In this document: piece by piece, positions 19,219 through 27,775 of the stretch
How positions within the stretch are numbered: position 1 is the first letter of the stretch
How the letters are laid out: each line of letters begins with the position of its first letter
Program-made: the position numbers and the translations under genes
Notes under the pieces: generated by a model
Told to the model about the DNA's origin: nothing
Databases searched by the model: none
The model's input: only the letters and a program-made list of their open reading frames with translations
Origin: Spirochaetaceae bacterium
GTDB taxonomy: Bacteria; Spirochaetota; Spirochaetia; Treponematales; Rectinemataceae
Assembly: GCA_025358255.1 (NCBI GenBank)
Contig: JANYKC010000051.1
Location: 1 to 64,000, forward strand
Length of the DNA stretch: 64,000 nt
Reading direction: 5' to 3'

Positions 19219-19266
19219 TCCCGGATTGCATCGGGAAAAAAAATCGGTTAGCTTTGCCGTATCGTG

Positions 19267-20229
19267 ATGAAATACAGCCTTGGGGGCTTCTATAGTCACC
19301 GTGATTTCATGCGTGAGCTCCTTCTGGAAAAGAAGACCAACCCCCAGATCTTCAACAATGATTTCCAGATAGACTCGCTCTACGATTCCTTCCCCAACGT
19401 GATTTTCAACGGCGGGCGTCTTTTTATCATGAAGGATTTCGTTCAGGGAAAGGGAGATGAGCTCGAAGCCCTGGTGAAATTCTACAACAACCAAGGCATC
19501 GGGATTCGCTATACCTATTCCAACTCCGCGGTGGAGGCCCGTCATCTCGCCGATCCCTATGCCAACCTGACGCTGGAAATTGCCCATAACGAAATGAATG
19601 GCGTGATTGTCAATAATCCGATTCTTGAAGACTATATCCGCCACAAATATCCGAAATACAAGATCATCATTTCCACGACTGCCCAGCAGTTTGATCCTGA
19701 ATGGTACAAGCGCAGGCGTGAGGAAGTGGACATTTTCGTCCTGCCTGTAGAGCTCAATTTCGATGAAAAGCTTATCGAGATTATCGGAGCGGATAAAGTG
19801 GAGATAATGGTCAACGAAGGTTGCGCGGCAAACTGCCCATTCAAGAAAGACCACTATGCGGCCTCGTCGCGTGACCAATTGGCCCTAAGGGACGAGAACC
19901 TCGAGGGGGATGTTTTTTTCAGGCAATATTGTCCCATCCGCGAAGGAACCAGCCTATGGAAAACCGGATACCGCTTCGACCATCCCCCCGTTCGCCTTGG
20001 ACTGGATCAGATGCGAATGGTCGAAAGGCAATTTGGGGTAACGCACTTCAAGATCATCTGTCGATCCATGCCCCTCGAGATGTTCTACGATCAGATTGAG
20101 CGCTATCTCCTCCGAAGGAGTGCTCGTGACGGCACGAGGCTCAAGGCTTTTGTCGCTGAGAGGAAGAGAAGCTCCGAACGGGAAAAGGGGAAAGGGCGAG
20201 GCGAAGCTCCGACGACGCCCAAGTCCTGA
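19267..20229 (+). CDS. unrecognised protein with NEGC..NCPF motif
   Basis: A 320-residue cytoplasmic protein. The order of alternating strands and helices (for example GRLFIMKDFVQ, GIGIRYTYSNSA, MNGVIVNNPILEDYI, KIIISTTAQ, DIFVLPVELNFDE, KVEIMVNEGCAANCPFKKDH) suggests a TIM barrel similar to U32-peptidase-like or radical-SAM-like barrels. The Cys pair in VNEGCAANCPF and later single cysteines could bind an Fe-S cluster, but a CxxxCxxC motif is absent. The tail is basic and low in complexity. It immediately precedes the radical SAM/Tat operon but has its own unit. GTG 19264 is an alternative start; no Shine-Dalgarno is visible. Confidence 0.65.
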   Translation: MKYSLGGFYSHRDFMRELLLEKKTNPQIFNNDFQIDSLYDSFPNVIFNGGRLFIMKDFVQGKGDELEALVKFYNNQGIGIRYTYSNSAVEARHLADPYANLTLEIAHNEMNGVIVNNPILEDYIRHKYPKYKIIISTTAQQFDPEWYKRRREEVDIFVLPVELNFDEKLIEIIGADKVEIMVNEGCAANCPFKKDHYAASSRDQLALRDENLEGDVFFRQYCPIREGTSLWKTGYRFDHPPVRLGLDQMRMVERQFGVTHFKIICRSMPLEMFYDQIERYLLRRSARDGTRLKAFVAERKRSSEREKGKGRGEAPTTPKS

Positions 20230-20364: not shown

Positions 20365-20392
20365 TTGACAAGTGACCGCACAATAATATAAT
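20365..20392 (+). promoter_or_regulatory. promoter of the radical SAM/Tat operon
   Basis: Exact consensus TTGACA (20365-20370), 16-base spacer, exact TATAAT (20387-20392). It is one of the strongest promoters in the window and precedes eight tightly packed genes. The leader is about 42 bases with GAGGT before the first ATG. Confidence 0.85.
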
Positions 20393-20440
20393 CAGGTCAG
20401 CGGTTGGCAAGCCGCGAGCCGGATACGTAGAGGTCGATTG

Positions 20441-21448
20441 ATGGCAAACATTCTACTGACACAGCAGTGCGTCCGATCTTGTCCCTACTGTTTCGCAAAA
20501 AAACATATGGCCGATTCGGAAAAATCGGCAACCCTTTCCTGGGAAGACCTGATCCACATTGCCGACCTCTTTGATGACACGCCAGAAAAGCATCTCTCCC
20601 TCCTTGGCGGCGAACCCACCCTTCACCCGGACTTTGTAGACTACTTCGTGTACCTGATTGGCAGGGGTTACCATGTATCGGTTTTCACCTGTGGAATCCT
20701 CTCCGAAAAACGCCTAGATGAGCTCGTCGCCGCGCTGTCGACTGTCAACCCGGGCAAATATTCCTTCGTATGCAACCTGAACCATCCTTCCATGTCGACC
20801 GAAGCGGAAACCGAACGCATTGATGCCTTCCTCACCAAGCTGGGGAAGCAGACCGCCTTGTCTTTCAATGTATTCACCATGGATTTCACCATGGATTACC
20901 TTTTTGACTATATACAGCGCTATGACTTGCGTCGGAATCTTCGTATTGGGCTGGCCCATCCCATACCGGGCGAGACCAATGCATGTATCTCCCCAGGCCA
21001 ATTTGGCCCCATGATAGAGCGGCTCGCCTCTTATATTCCAAAATGCATATCTAGTGGGGTCGTCGCAGGTCTTGATTGCGGCTTCCCTCTATGCAAGTTC
21101 ACTGACGAGCAGATCGGGAAGTTCTATAAGCTGGAACATGGAAGCCAGAACCGATCCTTGAAATTTGTCTGCAATCCCGCCCTCGACATCGGGCCTGACA
21201 TGAAGGTCTGGTCCTGTTTTCCGCTATCGCGATTCAACAAGCGTAGCCTCTATGAGTTCAATTCAGTGGACGAAGTGATGGAGTATTTCATCACTTTCCA
21301 TAAAGAGACACGGGCCAAGGATGCCGGCGCCTTCGCCGAATGCGCTTCCTGCGCGTATCGGGCCGCCGAAAGATGCGCGGGTGGTTGCCTGGCGCAGTCC
21401 CTCAACCATCTGGGGATGACAGAAGTCGTCTTTGGGAGGGATGCATGA
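20441..21448 (+). CDS. radical SAM/SPASM-type enzyme, first gene of the Tat-RiPP operon
   Basis: A 335-residue radical SAM protein. The cluster motif is C10-x3-C14-x2-C17 (QQCVRSCPYC), followed by the SAM-binding LLGGEPTLHP (GGEP at 56-59). The C-terminal third has cysteines arranged as in SPASM auxiliary-cluster domains: FVCNPALDIGPDMKVWSCF and then CASCAYRAAERCAGGCLA. SPASM enzymes commonly modify ribosomal peptides, so a peptide-maturase role is likely given the tyrosine-rich precursor encoded 2 kb downstream. It overlaps the next gene by four bases (ATGA). ATG 20441 is preferred over TTG 20438. Confidence 0.88.
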   Translation: MANILLTQQCVRSCPYCFAKKHMADSEKSATLSWEDLIHIADLFDDTPEKHLSLLGGEPTLHPDFVDYFVYLIGRGYHVSVFTCGILSEKRLDELVAALSTVNPGKYSFVCNLNHPSMSTEAETERIDAFLTKLGKQTALSFNVFTMDFTMDYLFDYIQRYDLRRNLRIGLAHPIPGETNACISPGQFGPMIERLASYIPKCISSGVVAGLDCGFPLCKFTDEQIGKFYKLEHGSQNRSLKFVCNPALDIGPDMKVWSCFPLSRFNKRSLYEFNSVDEVMEYFITFHKETRAKDAGAFAECASCAYRAAERCAGGCLAQSLNHLGMTEVVFGRDA

Positions 21449-22308
21449 ACGAGCTTATTCCCGTATTCGCCCCCGATGCGGGTCTCTCGAAGCGCTTGGA
21501 TGTCGAGAAGGTTGTCCTTGTTTTCGACAAGCTTGAGGATACCCTTGAATCCGGCAGCTCCCATGAAAGGGAACAGTCCCTCCATTGCGTGATCGTCAGG
21601 GAAGCGAGGAACCTGGATCTGCTGACTTTCGAAGGCATCGAGCATGCATTGCCCATTGCCCTCTTTGTCCCTGCCGTCGGGTCGATCAGGATTGCCATCA
21701 GTCGGGCCAAGGTATACTCGGCCTTCAACCTCCGGATCTTTCTTCCCGCTCTTCCGCGCGAAAACCTGGTCCATGCTCGCATCCTTGCGAGCCTCGGCAT
21801 CGAAATGGCAGTGGTGATTCCTCAGGAAGAGAAAGACCTGCCATGGGACGAGATCTCGGACTTGATGCACTATGCGGTGTATTCTCCGTCCCGAAAGGGA
21901 AGCATTGAACCCTTCGAACGCTTTGTGACCCGGGGTGACACGCAAGGAGTCACCGCTTTCGGCTCGCCCTGGTTTGACGACCCTGAGCGCTTCATCCATA
22001 TAGACGCGCAGGGGCGGCTTGCCTTTTCAAAGCGTGACCTGGAGGAAGGGCATTTCTTGCAGACAAGGCCCGAGGAGCTTTCGAACCTTCACCAAAACGA
22101 GGAATACCAAGGCAACCTCAAGCGTTGGCAAGCAAGTTTCTTGCGCAACAGCAAGTGCTCGTATTGCGCGGCGTGGAGCGCCTGCCAGGGGGCTTATATA
22201 GAAAGCTGCTCGCACGACCCGCGCTGTGAGGCATTCTTCTCGGAGATGGTCGAGGCGCTGGATTTCAGAAGCCAGAATCGAGGTCGAACAAAGATATGGC
22301 AGTCGTAA
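21445..22308 (+). CDS. pseudo-radical-SAM/SPASM-like partner protein
   Basis: A 287-residue protein that follows the first radical SAM gene with a four-base overlap. It has a barrel-like series of strands and helices but no CxxxCxxC motif near the N-terminus. The C-terminus keeps a cysteine cluster (KCSYCAAWSACQGAYIESC, then PRCEAFF) that looks like a SPASM auxiliary-cluster domain. By analogy with pseudo-rSAM or SPASM-only partners in other peptide-modifying systems, it probably binds substrate or relays electrons for the adjacent enzymes. This is inference from architecture and context only. Confidence 0.7.
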   Translation: MNELIPVFAPDAGLSKRLDVEKVVLVFDKLEDTLESGSSHEREQSLHCVIVREARNLDLLTFEGIEHALPIALFVPAVGSIRIAISRAKVYSAFNLRIFLPALPRENLVHARILASLGIEMAVVIPQEEKDLPWDEISDLMHYAVYSPSRKGSIEPFERFVTRGDTQGVTAFGSPWFDDPERFIHIDAQGRLAFSKRDLEEGHFLQTRPEELSNLHQNEEYQGNLKRWQASFLRNSKCSYCAAWSACQGAYIESCSHDPRCEAFFSEMVEALDFRSQNRGRTKIWQS

Positions 22309-23441
22309 TCTTCAAGGCCATCGAGGACTGCAACTCCAACTGCCTCTATTGCAAGGTAGTGAAAAAACCCAGGGACGAGGTCATGTCCCTTGCCCTCCTC
22401 GAAACGGTCTTCATGCGAATTGGCGATTTCTTGCGGGAACGGCCCGATGAGACCCTCGAATTCACCTGGCATGGCGGTGAGGCTTGCCTGCTTGGAGCCG
22501 ACTATTTCCGGGCCGCCCGGCGCTACCAGGAAAAGCACTGCGCAGGAATGGAAAAGCGGATCAGTCACCTGATCCAGTCCAATATGACCCTCCTTTCCCA
22601 GGATCTTGTCGATGCCTTCAAGGCCTTGGGCATCAACAAGATCGGGTCGAGCTTCGAGCCCCTCCCCAACATACGGGGCTTTGGCCCCGAGCGGGATTCC
22701 GATGCCTATAACCGGCTCTTCTTCAAGGGTGTGGAGCTTGCGGAAAGGAACAACCTGACATGGGGAGTGATCTATGTCGTGCATCGCCGCTCCCTTGGCA
22801 AGGCCAAGGAGATCCTCCGGTATTTGGTCAACCTGAACCCCCGATCCCTGCCCCAGCTGAACAAGATCTACCTCTACGAAGAGGATGAATTCGGCCTGGA
22901 TATCAGCCCCGAGGAGTATGCCGATTTCCTCGGCGAGCTCTTTCCCATGTTCTGGGCGAACAGGAAGCGCTGGGGCGGCCTCCAGCCGATATCGACCTTG
23001 GTCAATGCGATGGAAAGGGAAGGAGGCAGTGTCTGCGACTATTCCGGGAAATGCACACGGAAATGGCTGTACATCGGTCCTGCCGGAAAGGCCTCGCACT
23101 GCGGAAAGGGCGGCGACTACGACCTGATAAGCTACGGGAATATCCGCGATCGGTCGATCGCCGAGATCCTCGCTGATCCCTTGCGGGCGCCCTTAGAGGC
23201 GAGGCAGGAGAGCCTTCCCTTGGGCGAGTGCAAGGATTGCCGGTTCTGGGGCATCTGCCATGGCGGCTGTCCCTTGGACGCCTTGGCCACGCGCGGCGAT
23301 ATCCTCAAGGCCTCCAGCCATTGCGCTTTCATCAAGCGTTTCATGGGTGAATATGTGGAACCGATCACCGGCATGACCGTCAACCAACGGCCGCATGCCA
23401 ATGAATACGAGCGGCGAAAGGAAGTTGGCATCGCACGATAA
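22296..23441 (+). CDS. radical SAM/SPASM peptide maturase
   Basis: A 381-residue anSME-like radical SAM enzyme. It has C12-x3-C16-x2-C19 (DCNSNCLYC), the GGE motif WHGGEA at 59-63, and a full SPASM domain: CTRKWLYIGPAGKASHCGKG, YGNIRDRSIAEIL and ECKDCRFWGICHGGCP, then SSHCAF. Domain order and spacing match maturases that cross-link or epimerise residues in ribosomal peptides. It overlaps the preceding gene by 13 bases and ends 12 bases before the tyrosine-rich precursor gene, making it the best candidate for the principal modifying enzyme. Confidence 0.9.
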   Translation: MAVVIFKAIEDCNSNCLYCKVVKKPRDEVMSLALLETVFMRIGDFLRERPDETLEFTWHGGEACLLGADYFRAARRYQEKHCAGMEKRISHLIQSNMTLLSQDLVDAFKALGINKIGSSFEPLPNIRGFGPERDSDAYNRLFFKGVELAERNNLTWGVIYVVHRRSLGKAKEILRYLVNLNPRSLPQLNKIYLYEEDEFGLDISPEEYADFLGELFPMFWANRKRWGGLQPISTLVNAMEREGGSVCDYSGKCTRKWLYIGPAGKASHCGKGGDYDLISYGNIRDRSIAEILADPLRAPLEARQESLPLGECKDCRFWGICHGGCPLDALATRGDILKASSHCAFIKRFMGEYVEPITGMTVNQRPHANEYERRKEVGIAR

Positions 23442-23453
23442 GAGGAGGGTGAT

Positions 23454-23705
23454 ATGGAAGACAAAAAGGTTGTCCAGGCCGAAGGAAAGGCGGAAGTGAC
23501 CATCAGCAGGCGTGATGCGCTGAAACGGATGGCCAAGGTTGGCGCTGTCGTCGCGGGAACCGCGGTCCTGGCGGCTTCCTGCGACATGTTCTACTATGAC
23601 TACTACGATTATTCGGACTACTACTCGAACTACTACTACTCCAACTACTATGCCTACTACAACTACTACAATTATTACAACTACTACAATTACTACTACT
23701 ATTGA
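23454..23705 (+). CDS. Tat-targeted tyrosine-rich lipopeptide precursor
   Basis: An 83-residue peptide with three parts. Residues 1-17 are a charged leader. Residues 18-42 are a twin-arginine signal (SRRDALKRM, then the weakly hydrophobic VGAVVAGTAVLAAS) ending at Cys43, a plausible spirochaete lipobox (LAASC). Residues 44-83 are extraordinary: 24 of 40 are Tyr, arranged in triplets YYD, YYD, YSD, then YYS/YSN variants and finally YYN four times, ending in four Tyr. The strong AGGAGG five bases before the ATG suggests high expression. The gene lies directly after two radical SAM enzymes and before tatA and tatC. I infer a radical-SAM-modified, Tat-exported, lipidated peptide. Aromatic-x-Asn/Asp triplets resemble the substrates of three-residue cyclophane-forming maturases; cross-linking is a hypothesis. 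Confidence 0.85.
   Translation: MEDKKVVQAEGKAEVTISRRDALKRMAKVGAVVAGTAVLAASCDMFYYDYYDYSDYYSNYYYSNYYAYYNYYNYYNYYNYYYY
23592..23703 (+). repeat. tandem trinucleotide/9-base repeat encoding the Tyr-rich core
   Basis: The core is encoded by imperfect tandem units of the form TAC-TAC-AAC/GAC with occasional TAT and AAT codons. This DNA-level repetitiveness may allow changes in the number of YYN units by slippage; synonymous TAC/TAT alternation shows the repeats are not all recent. Confidence 0.7.
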
Positions 23706-23737
23706 GGTTCGGGGCGGCACGGGTGTAGGAGGTTCGA

Positions 23738-23926
23738 ATGCTCGGTTTCGGTGAGATTCTCCTGGTGGCCATCGCCTTGTTCCTCGTTTTCGGGGCGTCG
23801 CGCCTTCCCAAGCTCGGCAAGTCCCTGGGTGAGGGCATCCGGGAATTCAAGGACAGCCTGAAGGCAGGGATCGCCGAGGACGACACGAAAGAGGCCGGGG
23901 AAGGCAAGACGCCTCCGCAGGCTTGA
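23738..23926 (+). CDS. tatA: twin-arginine translocase subunit TatA/E
   Basis: A 62-residue protein with the standard TatA layout: one N-terminal membrane helix (FGEILLVAIALFLVFGA), the hinge and amphipathic helix RLPKLGKSLGEGIREFKDSL, and a short polar tail. The FG..RLP.LG.S.G.GI.EFK signature is clear. It lies 32 bases after the Tat-targeted precursor and overlaps tatC by one base, so it forms the pore-like component of the locally encoded Tat translocon. Confidence 0.95.
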   Translation: MLGFGEILLVAIALFLVFGASRLPKLGKSLGEGIREFKDSLKAGIAEDDTKEAGEGKTPPQA

Positions 23927-24645
23927 TGGCACGTCTCTCCATGTCCAAGGCCCTCCCCTTCCAGGGGCATCTGGAGGAGTTGCGGCGACGCCTGCTTGTC
24001 GTAGTCGGCGCCGCTGTCTTGCTCTCCGTCTTCGGCTATTGGGCATACCCCAAGGTATACTCCTTCATCGGTTCGATCGTGGGCGAGAAGCTCTTCCTGA
24101 GCAAGGTGTACGAAGGCTTCTTCATCCGCTTGAAGGTCGGTGTCCTTGTCGGGGTGTTCCTCACCATACCGATATTCCTCTATCAGGCATTCGCCTACAT
24201 ACTCCCCGCGCTTGAGCGTCGGGAGAAGATGATGCTATCTGCCCTCCTCGTCTCGAGCCTGGGGCTTTTCATCGGTGGCGTGGCCGCATCGATCCGGGTT
24301 GTCCTCCCCCTGTCGATCCGGGTGCTCCGTTCGAGCTCCTTCAACCCCGACGACGTAAGCAGGATCATTTCATATGATTCCTTCGTGATGTTCGTATTCC
24401 AGTTCGCGGTGGCCTTCGGCGCTTGCCTGCAGTTCCCGATAGTGATCATGATCCTTCTTTACTACAAGATCGTAAGTACGGCCATGCTGATTCGCTTCTC
24501 AAGGTATTTCGTGGTCGTGGCCCTCCTTGTGGCAGGCATCCTTACGCCGACTCCCGACATGATCTCCCAGGTCATGTTGGCCGTGCCCCTTATCGCCCTG
24601 TATTTCCTCTGCATCTCTATCGCAAAAATCCTGCGCTGGAGCTGA
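23926..24645 (+). CDS. tatC: twin-arginine translocase subunit TatC
   Basis: A 239-residue integral membrane protein with about six helices. The N-terminal signature QGHLEELRRRLL, the periplasmic glutamate region KVYEGFFIRLKVG, and YQAFAYILPALERREK near residue 90 are the TatC family landmarks; the first is where the twin-arginine motif binds. The start ATG shares its A with the tatA stop TGA; an in-frame TTG lies three bases upstream. Its position directly after the precursor and tatA indicates a receptor dedicated to this system, although it could also serve other Tat substrates of the cell. Confidence 0.95.
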   Translation: MARLSMSKALPFQGHLEELRRRLLVVVGAAVLLSVFGYWAYPKVYSFIGSIVGEKLFLSKVYEGFFIRLKVGVLVGVFLTIPIFLYQAFAYILPALERREKMMLSALLVSSLGLFIGGVAASIRVVLPLSIRVLRSSSFNPDDVSRIISYDSFVMFVFQFAVAFGACLQFPIVIMILLYYKIVSTAMLIRFSRYFVVVALLVAGILTPTPDMISQVMLAVPLIALYFLCISIAKILRWS

Positions 24646-24651
24646 TCTGCG

Positions 24652-26352
24652 ATGTTCAACTTCGGCCTCGGTGAAATGCTCCTCGTCCTCCTCGTCTTTT
24701 TCCTGGTTGCCCCCCAGGATATTCCCAAGGCTTTCCGCAAGCTCGGCGAACTCCTTGCCTCGATACGGAAATTCACCAAGGAAGCCGGGCTTGAGGATGC
24801 CGGCAATTTGCTCAATGACACGAAGCGCGAGCTTTCCGATGCGGGAATCCCCATCGGCGGCCGCGGCGCTCGGCAAGGCGGCCTTGCCAAGGGGCCGGAA
24901 GGGAGCTTGATGACTGCGGAGGAGATGGAGAGCGACCGCCGCATAAGGACTGAGGACGAGGAAAACGTCAAGCTTGGGCTTATAGAGTTGTTCTCCAGGG
25001 AATACTCGCCGGACAGCGCCAGGAGGATACTGGGCTTCATGGCGGGGGCGGGCACTCCGGAGATGCGGCATCGAGCCGCGGATTGCCTCCTTCAGGATCC
25101 GCTCTTTGCCTTCCAAAAACGCCAGGTCCCGAACCGCTCCCCTGACGCATCGAAGAAAGGGGCTCCAGGCGCCGTGAATGCCTGCTTTGACGAGAAAAGG
25201 ATCAAGGATCTCTCTGAATACCTGGCCTCCTTGCCCGAGAAGTACTTCAAGGGGCTCCTACCTGCCATCGCGAGCCTTCCCGGCATTGAGAACCTTGATC
25301 TTCGCCGCGTTTTCTCTGGCAAAAAAAGCGCGCTTTACGAGGAATACCGGAAGATCCGTTCCAAAGAATGGGCCCGCAGGTATCCCCGTCAACTTGCCGT
25401 CGTGCCGACATACGACTGCGACCGTGGCTGCGAGTATTGCTTTTCGCGGGACCTTTCCCGATTTTACGCGAAACCGATGGATGTGGGGGCTTTCGAGGCT
25501 ATGTTGGACGCGGTGGATCCCCAGCGGAAACTGGAAGTCATCGGGCTTTTCGGGGGGGAACCGACTTCGTTCGACGCCTTGGAAGACTTCATCGCCGTGA
25601 TCGAGAAGCGCGGCCTTCTCTTCACCGTCGCGACAAACGGCCTTGCCGATCCCGCGACATTCCGGAAAATCGCATCCCATGACTCGTTATGTGCATTGAC
25701 CTTCCATATCGATCGGGATGAAAGCTATACCGGCGAGGAACGCGAGCGGGTCGGCAGGAATGTCGCGGAGGCCGCGGCTCGGGGAAGGCATGTCATTTTC
25801 CGCTACAACCTTGTCGACGCGGCAACCAGGGATTGGGGTTTCCTCGATGCCTTCATCGATGCCGTCCCCGAATTCTTCTTCAATTTTTCGACGGTCTTTC
25901 CCGCTCGGCGAGGGACCAACGTCAGCATCGATGTCGAAAACCTCCGGTCCTTCGTGCCCCCGATCATCTCCCTTGTTGATTACGTAAGGATGAGGACGGG
26001 GCGGAAGCTCTGCAGGATTTCCTTTGCCAAGCCTTTTCCCCTCTGCTTCTTCCGTGACGAGGAATTCCGTTTTCTCATGCGCCACGCCGCATTCAAGAAC
26101 ATCTGCGACCTAGATCGAAACGATTCCACCAACAACCTGACGGTGAATCCCGATGGGTCCTACCATCCCTGCATGGCCCTGACTTCGGACGCCTACCGCT
26201 TCGATGCCTTGGGCGACCTGGATCGCATACCCAGCGAGTATTTCCGGCGCATCCAGGGCTTGATCGCGCAGCCATACCTGCCCGCCTGCTCCACCTGCCG
26301 CCTGTTCGACCTGGGCGTGTGCCAGGCCCTGTGCTACGCCTACGGCCCATGA
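24652..26352 (+). CDS. TatB-like domain fused to radical SAM/SPASM enzyme
   Basis: One uninterrupted frame of 566 residues. Residues 1-60 read as TatB/TatA: MFNFGLGEMLLVLLVFFLVA, then PQDIPKAFRKLGELLASIRKF, closely paralleling the TatB membrane helix, hinge and amphipathic helix. Residues 85-245 are a helical, charged linker. A radical SAM domain follows, with C256-x3-C260-x2-C263 (YDCDRGCEYC) and GGEPTSF at 301-307. The C-terminus has SPASM-like cysteines: NICDLDR, NPDGSYHPC and ACSTCRLFDLGVCQALC. It supplies the missing third Tat component of the operon and would anchor a cytoplasmic maturase to the translocon, coupling modification with export. An internal ATG at 24910 (codon 87) with GGGAG just upstream might also yield a soluble form. 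I know of no described protein of this design. Confidence 0.88.
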   Translation: MFNFGLGEMLLVLLVFFLVAPQDIPKAFRKLGELLASIRKFTKEAGLEDAGNLLNDTKRELSDAGIPIGGRGARQGGLAKGPEGSLMTAEEMESDRRIRTEDEENVKLGLIELFSREYSPDSARRILGFMAGAGTPEMRHRAADCLLQDPLFAFQKRQVPNRSPDASKKGAPGAVNACFDEKRIKDLSEYLASLPEKYFKGLLPAIASLPGIENLDLRRVFSGKKSALYEEYRKIRSKEWARRYPRQLAVVPTYDCDRGCEYCFSRDLSRFYAKPMDVGAFEAMLDAVDPQRKLEVIGLFGGEPTSFDALEDFIAVIEKRGLLFTVATNGLADPATFRKIASHDSLCALTFHIDRDESYTGEERERVGRNVAEAAARGRHVIFRYNLVDAATRDWGFLDAFIDAVPEFFFNFSTVFPARRGTNVSIDVENLRSFVPPIISLVDYVRMRTGRKLCRISFAKPFPLCFFRDEEFRFLMRHAAFKNICDLDRNDSTNNLTVNPDGSYHPCMALTSDAYRFDALGDLDRIPSEYFRRIQGLIAQPYLPACSTCRLFDLGVCQALCYAYGP

Positions 26353-27437
26353 AACCGCGAGTCCGGGCCGCCGCCCTTTTGCTGGCGGCCGCTTTCCTGG
26401 CCATGCCAGCGAGTCCCCGGGAATACGACCGGAGGACCTTCGATCCGCGGGCGGCCACGAGATCGGCCATCGAGCTTCTCGGCAACCTGCGATTCCGTGA
26501 GGCCACCGAAGCGATTGCCTCGATCGAGAGACAAGAACCCGCAGGCTATCGCGCGCCTTTCCTCAAGTCCTGCATGTCCGTCTGGCAGGTATTCATGTCC
26601 GCGGATCGAGGATCGGTCACAAGGCTTCGCGAGGAATGCGACCGAACCATCGCGGCATGCGAATCCGGCGCGATGGCCAACGAGGACGACGCCCGCCTGT
26701 TTCGGGCGGCTGCCTGTGTCTTTGTCGCGAAGGCCTCCATGGAATCGGGCAAGTCCGTAGAAGCCTTCATCTGGCTGGCCCGAGCCAAGGAAGCTTCCCG
26801 GCCCTTGCTCGCCGCGGGGCTTGCCGATGCTTGCCTCTTCAGTGCTTGCTTCGACTATTACCTCGCGCCCGGCCGAGGAAGCTACCGCGGGGACCTTGAG
26901 AGGGCCTTTTCCCAGGGTTATTACTTCCCCTCATTGGCCGCATATCTTGGGGGGCTCTTCAACGAGGAAACCGGCGATTGGAAGGGAGCCAAGGCCATCC
27001 TCGAACCATTGGTCCGCGATTATCCTGGCAACTCCCTCTACTGGTACCTGTTCGGGAAGAGCCTTCAGCACCTGCATGAGCCCTTGGGCGCCTTGGAGGC
27101 TTTTCGCAGATCGATCTCCGAGCTCAAGGTCGAGCCACCCCCAGAACGGCTCGGGGCGGAGACCTGGTTCGCGCTCGGACAACTGCTTGAGAATGACCTT
27201 CATGACAATGCGGCGGCGATGGCCGCCTATGCGTCGGTCAAGTCCATCGCGCGTTCCGATTATGCGCCGGTCCGGCGGCTTCGCGCTTATGCCTCGCTCC
27301 AGACCGGCAATTGCCTGTCGAGGCAGGGCGACAAGGCCGCAGCGATGGAATCGTGGCAGATGGTGAGGAAGGCGGATGATGCCCGCGCATGGTCGCTGGC
27401 GTCCGAGGCCATGCGGCGCTCTTCTGCCGAGCCGTGA
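26349..27437 (+). CDS. secreted TPR-like protein of the Tat-RiPP operon
   Basis: A 362-residue protein overlapping the TatB-radical SAM fusion by four bases (ATGA). It has an N-terminal signal peptide (AAALLLAAAFLAMPASP) and helical repeats. TPR-like units are recognisable in the second half (YWYLFGKSLQHLHEPLGALEAFRRSI, TWFALGQLLENDLHDNAAAMAAYASV, LQTGNCLSRQGDKAAAMESW). As the last gene in the operon it may bind or organise the exported tyrosine-rich lipopeptide in the periplasm. That role is inferred from position only. Confidence 0.72.
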   Translation: MKPRVRAAALLLAAAFLAMPASPREYDRRTFDPRAATRSAIELLGNLRFREATEAIASIERQEPAGYRAPFLKSCMSVWQVFMSADRGSVTRLREECDRTIAACESGAMANEDDARLFRAAACVFVAKASMESGKSVEAFIWLARAKEASRPLLAAGLADACLFSACFDYYLAPGRGSYRGDLERAFSQGYYFPSLAAYLGGLFNEETGDWKGAKAILEPLVRDYPGNSLYWYLFGKSLQHLHEPLGALEAFRRSISELKVEPPPERLGAETWFALGQLLENDLHDNAAAMAAYASVKSIARSDYAPVRRLRAYASLQTGNCLSRQGDKAAAMESWQMVRKADDARAWSLASEAMRRSSAEP

Positions 27438-27451
27438 TCCAGGGGAGCCCT

Positions 27452-27775
27452 CTAGCGCGCGAGGCCGGGAGGAATGGGATTATCCACGACGATCCGCTTG
27501 ATGAGGTCGGCGATGAAGGGGTCGATGATCGAATAGACACGCCGCGTTTTTTGCACTTCCGCGCTGACTATGCCGTTTTCCTTCAGGATCGCCAAATGCT
27601 GGGAAATGACTGGCTGGGGTTGCTTCAGGCAATGCCAGAGATCGGAGACGCATGGATCTTCCTCCCGTGCGATGAGGCAGAGGAGGCGGAGGCGGATGGG
27701 ATGGCCTACCGCCTTGATTTTCCGGGCATACTCCGTAAGGTATTCGTCCGGACAGGTCTTCTCTGGTTCTGGCAT
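27452..27775 (-). CDS. ArsR/SmtB-family transcriptional regulator
   Basis: A 107-residue winged-helix repressor. The fold is visible as AVGHPIRLRLLCLI, the recognition helix QPVISQHLAILKENGIVSAE and the wing KTRRVYSI. A cysteine in DPCVSDLWHC occupies the position of the ArsR metal-binding C-x-C-DLW motif, but the first cysteine of that pair is missing (PCVSD), so ligand and mode are unclear. It converges with the Tat-RiPP operon over only 14 bases and could regulate it, or itself, or distant genes. Confidence 0.85.
   Translation of the reverse strand: MPEPEKTCPDEYLTEYARKIKAVGHPIRLRLLCLIAREEDPCVSDLWHCLKQPQPVISQHLAILKENGIVSAEVQKTRRVYSIIDPFIADLIKRIVVDNPIPPGLAR

What the first reader, a model, noticed from the sequence alone, without database searches (positions are those of the whole stretch)
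20365..27437. Radical SAM - Tyr-rich Tat peptide - Tat translocon operon
Seen directly: one consensus promoter and eight genes with overlaps or gaps of at most 32 bases. They encode two radical SAM enzymes, a radical-SAM-like protein without the cluster motif, a Tat-signal tyrosine-rich peptide, TatA, TatC, a TatB-like/radical SAM fusion and a secreted TPR-like protein. Known: SPASM enzymes modify ribosomal peptides, and Tat exports folded proteins bearing an RR signal. Inference: a post-translationally modified lipopeptide is made in the cytoplasm and exported by its own translocon, perhaps because cross-linked peptide cannot pass Sec. I do not know a published system with this gene set.
Basis: partly seen in the sequence, partly recalled or inferred. 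Interest (0 to 1): 0.95.

Follow-up and report, generated by a model that had tools for sequence, protein, structure and literature searches.

The report
Tat translocon fused to peptide-modifying enzyme
This bacterial operon groups genes for radical SAM enzymes with a tyrosine-rich peptide that carries a twin-arginine export signal and with a second set of Tat export genes, one of them apparently fused to another radical SAM enzyme, so the peptide is likely chemically modified inside the cell and then exported by a translocon of its own.

Summary
In detail: eight tightly packed genes at 20441-27437 behind a 12-of-12 promoter match. A (radical SAM), B (radical-SAM-like, no CxxxCxxC, four SPASM-like Cys), C (radical SAM/SPASM) and D (Tyr-rich precursor) are a real cassette: 12 further loci, one a fragment, in Bacteroidales, Ignavibacteria and probably Chlorobia; D is beside it in 12 of 13 loci. 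D has a twin-arginine signal in 9 of 12, and all 7 tested genomes with such a D have TatC. Three genomes without TatA/TatC hits keep A-B-C-D with a degraded RR. D is rich in Tyr-X-(Asn/Asp/Ser), the spacing triceptide enzymes cross-link, though in half the precursors another offset fits as well. Adjacent tat genes were seen in 2 of 13 loci: the window (TatA, TatC, TatB-like::radical SAM) and L058 (a TatA between D and A). So Tat export of a radical-SAM-modified Tyr-rich peptide is a supported inference; 'cross-linked peptide cannot pass Sec' is weakened. The fusion was seen in one species, and its TatB part scores below the curated cut-off. Chemistry, export and function are untested. New variant of a known kind; a strong lead.

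The parts
20365..20392 (+). sigma-70-type promoter, TTGACA-16-TATAAT
   Evidence: 12 of 12 consensus match
20441..21448 (+). gene A, radical SAM protein with CVRSCPYC motif and SPASM-like C-terminus
   Evidence: Pfam Radical_SAM E 2.3e-15; 45-49% identity to six relatives; CxxxCxxC in 12 of 12 loci compared
21445..22308 (+). gene B, degenerate radical-SAM-like protein without the SAM cluster motif, four SPASM-like Cys kept
   Evidence: no Pfam hit, SPASM sub-threshold; CxxxCxxC absent and Cx2Cx5CxnC present in 12 of 12; model pLDDT 79, only PDB match under E 1e-3 a sactipeptide maturase, 9.3e-4, TM 0.46; 89 proteins at E <= 1e-6 in 5.8 billion, the own one included
22296..23441 (+). gene C, radical SAM/SPASM peptide maturase-like enzyme
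   Evidence: best NCBIfam DarE 118.1 of 650 bits; 47-52% identity to six relatives
23454..23705 (+). gene D, precursor: twin-arginine signal, lipobox-like Cys, Tyr-rich tail with Tyr-X-(Asn/Asp/Ser) units
   Evidence: sequence; relatives; offset test
23738..23926 (+). TatA
   Evidence: Pfam TatA_B_E E 1.8e-15
23926..24645 (+). TatC, divergent second copy
   Evidence: Pfam TatC E 1.1e-47; 28% identical to the copy on contig C62; TatC structures matched
24652..26352 (+). gene G, TatB-like N-terminus (about residues 1-45) fused to a radical SAM/SPASM-like enzyme
   Evidence: TatB of 9e03 E 5e-4, NCBIfam tatB sub-threshold; Radical_SAM at 250-353; unfused relatives P0002-P0008 start behind the TatB part
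26349..27437 (+). gene H, TPR-like protein with N-terminal signal-like segment (by eye), overlapping G by 4 bases
   Evidence: TPR_6 E 4.7e-7; no phmmer relative in the loci compared

Best explanation
The operon encodes radical SAM proteins, a Tyr-rich precursor with a twin-arginine signal, TatA, TatC and a TatB-like start on a further radical SAM protein, and the precursor is predicted to be cross-linked in the cytoplasm at its Tyr-X-(Asn/Asp/Ser) triplets and then likely exported by this Tat set. Inferred steps: (1) B, which keeps a SPASM-like Cys set but lacks the SAM-cleaving cluster motif, would hold the precursor or pass electrons; A and C would do the radical chemistry, C joining a Tyr ring carbon to the beta carbon of the residue two places on, as triceptide enzymes do. 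(2) The RR signal would bring the modified precursor to this TatC; the TatB-like part of G would place G's radical SAM domain at the translocon, so that a last modification or a check is coupled to export. (3) A signal peptidase (type II in the window) would leave a membrane-anchored stalk of stiffened Tyr triplets. In the probable Chlorobia relatives the same kind of Tyr-rich stretch links the signal to a C-terminal Lcl_C domain, which suggests a stalk role. Shown: gene order, conservation, motifs, RR/TatC co-occurrence, the second Tat set. Not shown: any modification, any export, any function.
For: A-B-C conserved in 12 of 12 complete loci, D beside them in 12 of 13. C scores best with darobactin/dynobactin maturases, sulfatase maturase and cyclophane makers. 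Asn/Asp/Ser at Tyr+2 exceeds shuffles at P <= 0.05 in 11 of 12 precursors; PMC11002830 (passages) gives i to i+2 links, among them Tyr-Asp (YxdB), Trp-Asn/Asp and Phe-Ser. RR-type D with TatC in 7 of 7 genomes tested, no RR and no TatC or TatA/B in 3 of 3. L058 has a TatA in the cassette; its genome has three TatA_B_E genes where three genomes of its class have two each. The window genome has another tatA-tatC-tatB-like locus, and 2 of the 37 TatC-bearing genomes among 116 of the order have two TatC.
Against: Tat genes seen adjacent in only 2 of 13 loci. The three tat-less genomes keep the cassette, so Tat is not needed everywhere. TatC is common (11 of 14 control genomes; 37 of 116 in the order) and its base rate in the relatives' groups was not measured, so 7 of 7 is weak alone; the three tat-less genomes look like one clade and all but the own are drafts of untold completeness. 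The TatB match is under NCBIfam's cut-off and the G model is poor (pLDDT 59). The fusion is seen in one species. C reaches no curated cut-off and scores about as well with sulfatase maturase (112 against 118 bits); in PDB sequences its profile matches sulfatase maturase best. Tyr+2 is the single best of seven offsets in only 6 of 12 precursors (L005, L006, L007, L056, L058, L095); it ties in the window (with -2), L003 and L004 and is beaten in L008, L094 (by -2) and L057 (by +1). Tyr repeats grow by duplication and I chose the stretches by hand, so the shuffles overstate significance.
Confidence: 0.45

Rival explanations
1. The cassette modifies the Tyr-rich protein, but the Tat genes are a separate cargo: an acquired tatACB operon that landed downstream, with the TatB-like part of G serving only as a membrane anchor.
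For: Tat genes seen adjacent in 2 of 13 loci; the genome's other tat genes sit near another RR-signal protein and could export D; the window TatC is a long branch, at most 34% identical to the 20 others compared.
Against: TatA, TatC and G lie directly behind D in one run (32-base gap, 1-base overlap, 6-base gap); a different lineage also has a TatA inside the cassette; RR is kept in 9 of 12 D proteins.
Confidence: 0.25
2. The radical SAM enzymes do something other than Tyr-X-X cross-links, for example epimerisation, oxidation or sulfatase-maturase-like chemistry on Ser, and the Tyr repeats are plain low-complexity.
For: C scores with sulfatase maturase nearly as well as with cyclophane makers, and best in L095; its profile's best PDB sequence match is a sulfatase maturase; A and G match no peptide-maturase family over its cut-off; Tyr+2 is not the single best offset in 6 of 12 precursors.
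Against: Asn/Asp/Ser at Tyr+2 exceeds shuffles in 11 of 12 while spacers differ between lineages. Sulfatase genes were not searched for by model.
Confidence: 0.3
3. D is a secreted bacteriocin-like peptide rather than an anchored structural stalk.
For: Darobactin and dynobactin, made by the enzymes whose models C matches best, are antibiotics (abstract of PMC9055067 in the listing for darobactin; a figure legend passage of PMC11002830 for dynobactin).
Against: Lipobox-like Cys in window, L003, L004, L008, L094, L095; C-terminal Lcl_C domain on D in L056 and L058 and by near-identity in L057; no protease or ABC exporter among the cassette genes I listed, though flanks were not scanned by model for these.
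Confidence: 0.1

Closest known systems
Triceptides (three-residue cyclophane RiPPs; XncB, OscB/GrrM, MscB, YxdB, YhhB)
   Same: SPASM radical SAM enzyme beside a precursor with repeated aromatic-X-(Asn/Asp/Ser) triplets; a Tyr-Asp link is known (PMC11002830, passages).
   Different: Three radical-SAM-type proteins in the core, one degenerate; a Tat signal on the precursor; no family cut-off reached; Tat genes, not an ABC exporter, in the operon.
Darobactin/dynobactin maturases DarE, DynA
   Same: Best two NCBIfam models for C in the window; one of them is first in 3 of 4 relatives scanned and second in L095, behind sulfatase maturase.
   Different: 118.1 bits against a cut-off of 650; Trp/Lys chemistry in darobactin against a Tyr-rich precursor here.
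Quinohemoprotein amine dehydrogenase gamma subunit (QhpC, QhpD, QhpF)
   Same: Radical SAM cross-linking of a polypeptide in the cytoplasm, then export by a transporter of its own operon (PMC7876137, passages).
   Different: QhpF is an ABC transporter and the links are thioethers; here Tat and a Tyr-rich peptide.
Tat translocons (TatABC)
   Same: TatA-TatC-TatB order as in the genome's other locus; of five positions where changes impair E. coli TatC (F94, P97, L99, Y100, E103; PMC3712464, passages) P97, L99 and E103 are kept, F94 is Tyr and Y100 is Glu (alignment).
   Different: The TatB-like part runs on into a radical SAM/SPASM-like enzyme; none of the 7 other proteins has such a start.

Membership tests
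Triceptide / 3-CyFE systems | SPASM radical SAM enzyme scoring over a curated 3-CyFE family cut-off | tested here: not met
   GrrM/OscB 59.7 of 310 bits, YhhB 56.3 of 445, XyeB 31.2 of 450 for C
Triceptide / 3-CyFE systems | precursor with repeated aromatic-X-X triplets, third residue of the kinds known to be linked | tested here: inconclusive
   Asn/Asp/Ser at Tyr+2 above shuffles in 11 of 12 precursors, but the single best offset in only 6 of 12; known link types in PMC11002830
Triceptide / 3-CyFE systems | C-C bond between ring of residue i and beta carbon of residue i+2 | not testable with these tools
   needs MS/NMR
Darobactin maturase DarE | NCBIfam equivalog cut-off | tested here: not met
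   118.1 of 650 bits
Tat translocon | TatC family protein over curated cut-offs | tested here: met
   Pfam E 1.1e-47 (163 of 25.1 bits), NCBIfam tatC 150 of 132.7 bits; HLEELR and the Glu at E103 kept
Tat translocon | TatB subunit over a curated cut-off | tested here: not met
   N-terminus of G: tatB 22.2 of 56.5 bits; TatB of 9e03 E 5e-4
Tat substrate | RR signal in the precursor | tested here: met
   SRRDALKR in the window, RR in 9 of 12 precursors; TAT_signal_seq 15.3 of 16.7 bits, just under its cut-off
Tat substrate | export lost without Tat or with RR to KK | not testable with these tools
   experiment
Bacterial lipoprotein | lipobox with Cys behind the signal h-region | tested here: inconclusive
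   LAASC by eye; no lipoprotein predictor was run

The most novel reading that the evidence does not exclude
A Tat translocon dedicated to one substrate, in which the receptor subunit TatB is itself part of a radical SAM maturase, so that a poly-cyclophane tyrosine stalk is finished or checked on the translocon and exported folded: modification-coupled Tat export.
Probability: 0.3. Interest if true: 0.92.

Novelty: new variant of a known kind. Interest (0 to 1): 0.78.

Why it matters
If true it would be a radical-SAM-modified ribosomal peptide exported by Tat, and a Tat subunit fused to a modifying enzyme; none of the listings of my searches of the paper library on these points showed either, within the limits given in the report. 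It would make testable whether Tat proofreading can read a chemical modification. The cassette A-B-C-D itself, with a degenerate radical SAM partner that no Pfam or NCBIfam model named above its cut-off, gives enzymologists a new set of maturases beside long Tyr repeats, in one lineage perhaps as the stalk of a variable surface protein.

Tried and rejected
Radical SAM homologues of A in three other genomes of the window's phylum (G102, G196, G214) were looked at in L050-L052 and dropped from the cassette count: no B and Tyr-rich D seen beside them; L052 has a distant C-like gene (E 3e-13). L055 (G664) holds only C and a piece of B on a 5,222-base contig; it is counted among the 13 loci as the one without D. 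A model search for D itself was judged useless (low complexity), so D was sought by Tyr content, by eye and by phmmer beside A-B-C. A TatC tree could not place the window TatC (long branch joined with another long branch), so I make no claim on its origin. The model of G is too poor to support the TatB fold; its Foldseek hits only repeat 'radical SAM'. I looked for a reverse transcriptase or template repeat near the variable D tips in L057, L058 and L097-L101 with a crude motif and BLAST: no reverse transcriptase was picked up; one stretch, L058:16276-16429, is 72% like the tip of L056 and was not studied. A diversity-generating retroelement is a lead only. The genome tools name no organism for the window; that its order is a spirochaete order is my guess from genome sizes. 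'Chlorobia' for G640, G664, G667, G785 is likewise a guess from class and genome size.
Full report
What is there. Eight co-directional genes fill 20441-27437 with overlaps of 1-13 bases and gaps of 6-32, behind a perfect TTGACA-16-TATAAT at 20365. Pfam gives radical SAM domains in A, C and G, TatA, TatC and a TPR repeat in H. B has no Pfam hit and only a sub-threshold SPASM match in NCBIfam (E 0.02). D is 83 residues with 24 Tyr, an RR signal and a lipobox-like Cys.

Is it a conserved unit? A tblastn-confirmed scan of GTDB contigs with C, which reaches close relatives only, gave 6 loci, L003-L008. Profile searches of genomes gave more. With A at E <= 1e-40: 4 of 392 genomes in the window's phylum, the own one included, the other three distant and not counted. 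With C at E <= 1e-60: 5 of 395 (phylum of G419), 1 of 395 (class of G423, itself), 4 of 98 (class of G640), 1 of 255 (class of G419, itself) and 3 of 23 (family of G418); these samples overlap. After reading the DNA around them there are 13 loci with the window: L003-L008, L055-L058, L094, L095. L055 is a fragment. In the 12 loci where A, B and C are complete, A and C keep CxxxCxxC, and B lacks it in every one while keeping Cx2Cx5CxnC. L056 and L057 are nearly identical, so the complete loci amount to about 11 independent ones. In these samples the cassette is rare and scattered.

B. No model names it above a cut-off. A profile of 12 members finds 89 proteins at E <= 1e-6 in a database of 5.8 billion (3,837 candidates scored). 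Its model (pLDDT 79) has one PDB match under E 1e-3, 5wgg, from a paper on sactipeptide thioethers (TM 0.46 and rmsd 8.6, so weak). I read it as a degenerate radical SAM partner.

D. A Tyr-rich protein lies beside A-B-C in 12 of 13 loci, before or after them (that of L003 is cut by the contig end); the 13th locus is the fragment. Nine of 12 have RR-(E/D)-A-(L/I). The three without (L005, L006, L007) read KKR-x-AFKRF at the same place. TatC was found in G000, G418, G419, G423, G640, G667 and G785, all with an RR-type D (7 of 7). The three genomes with degraded RR, G420-G422, gave no TatC and no TatA/B. G1336 and G1341 (RR) were not tested; G664 has TatC but no D was seen. TatC is common in general (11 of 14 control genomes), the base rate among the relatives was not measured, the genomes are mostly drafts, and the three look like one clade.

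The triplet. In each Tyr-rich stretch, bounded by hand, I counted Asn/Asp/Ser two places behind Tyr against 2000 shuffles: P <= 0.05 in 11 of 12 (L003, 13 residues, 0.16). Spacers differ (none, one or two residues, e.g. YSDIN repeats in L007 and YNSG in L095). Against: of seven offsets, +2 is the single best in 6 of 12 precursors (L005, L006, L007, L056, L058, L095), ties in 3 (window, L003, L004) and is beaten in 3 (L008, L094, L057). Asn/Asp alone at +2 is not enriched in L056-L058 and L095, where Ser takes the place, and is borderline in L004 (P 0.053). Repeat growth makes shuffles too kind. Triceptide enzymes join ring carbons to the beta carbon at i+2, among them Tyr-Asp, Trp-Asn/Asp and Phe-Ser (PMC11002830, passages read). 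C scores best with DarE and DynA, then with sulfatase maturase, and meets no family cut-off but that of the general SPASM domain; four relatives behave alike, L095 with sulfatase maturase first; the best PDB sequence match is a sulfatase maturase. The chemistry is a reasoned guess.

The translocon. TatA, TatC and the TatB-like start of G follow D directly. The genome holds another TatA-TatC-TatB-like locus on contig C62 (its TatB by a phmmer match to G, E 3e-5); the two TatC are 28% identical. In the order 37 of 116 genomes have TatC, and 2 of those 37, G000 and G1155, have two; the genome of the same genus, G001, has one TatC and no match to G. TatC keeps the HLEELR stretch; of five positions whose change impairs E. 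coli TatC (F94, P97, L99, Y100, E103; PMC3712464, passages) three are kept, F94 is Tyr and Y100 is Glu. The TatB-like part of G matches TatB models weakly. In the protein search for G (E <= 1e-8, the 7,993 candidates sharing most words) the other seven hits start behind it. In L058 a TatA sits between D and A; that genome has three TatA_B_E genes, and three genomes of its class have two each. Two lineages thus have tat genes in the cassette with different content, which I take as independent; that is an inference from gene order.

How it may work. A, C and probably G act on D in the cytoplasm, B helps; the RR signal hands D to Tat; in the window the TatB-like::radical SAM fusion would place a maturase at the receptor. 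The product would be a membrane-anchored (window) or signal-peptidase-cut (L056-L058) stalk. In L056 and L058 D has a C-terminal Lcl_C domain, and L057 is nearly identical to L056. Those two genes differ by indels and 7 substitutions in the Tyr repeat, 2 single substitutions, and 41 substitutions clustered in the last 132 bases, as in proteins diversified by retroelements; no reverse transcriptase was picked up in the stretches searched.

Literature. Ten searches of the held library were made. Those on the point: radical SAM + cyclophane + twin-arginine, 0 papers; radical SAM + tyrosine-rich, 0; triceptide + tyrosine-rich, 0; radical SAM + twin-arginine translocation + ribosomally synthesized, 2 off the topic by title; 3 of 4 terms around twin-arginine, radical SAM, tyrosine-rich and RiPP, 1 off the topic by title. 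Broader ones were listed only in part: 20 of 187, 20 of 772, 10 of 139, 15 of 16; (QhpD) listed 4 of 4. I saw no paper in the listings that joins Tat export with a radical SAM RiPP. I read passages of four papers (PMC10352776, PMC11002830, PMC7876137, PMC3712464), none in full. Most subscription papers are not held, so this is not proof of absence.

Noticed in passing
L056:4959-5144 against L057:6788-6977: Tips of two nearly identical D proteins differ by a dense cluster of substitutions while the middle of the gene and the downstream flank printed look the same; Lcl_C domain. Looks like a diversity-generating retroelement target.
   Followed up: partly
L003, L004, L056, L057, L058, L095: A glycosyltransferase family 9 (heptosyltransferase-like) gene sits between C and D or behind C, so D may also be glycosylated; none beside the window cassette. 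Pfam was run on those of L004, L056 and L095; the others were judged by eye.
   Followed up: partly
L053 (contig C62 of the own genome): The genome's other tatA-tatC-tatB-like genes lie near a ferredoxin-like protein with an RR signal and an aldehyde ferredoxin oxidoreductase-like gene (named by eye).
   Followed up: no
L050 (G196): A cluster with two A-like and one G-like radical SAM genes, an ABC-transporter-like gene and HprK-like genes (the last two by eye): perhaps a related peptide system with an ABC exporter.
   Followed up: no
L095:7529-8608: A second, adjacent copy of C keeps CxxxCxxC but not the C-terminal SPASM Cys pattern.
   Followed up: no
L005-L007, behind D: Downstream genes look by eye like type IX sorting-domain proteins and, in L005 and L007, Rhs/SpvB-like surface proteins.
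   Followed up: no
window 27452-27775, minus strand: Small ORF behind the operon that looks by eye like an ArsR-type regulator.
   Followed up: no
window 19264-20229: Upstream gene of 321 residues with a sub-threshold Peptidase_U32 match (E 0.031); separated from A by 211 bases that hold the promoter.
   Followed up: no
G1155: The other genome of the order with two TatC genes; its second tat locus was not looked at and might be another dedicated set.
   Followed up: no
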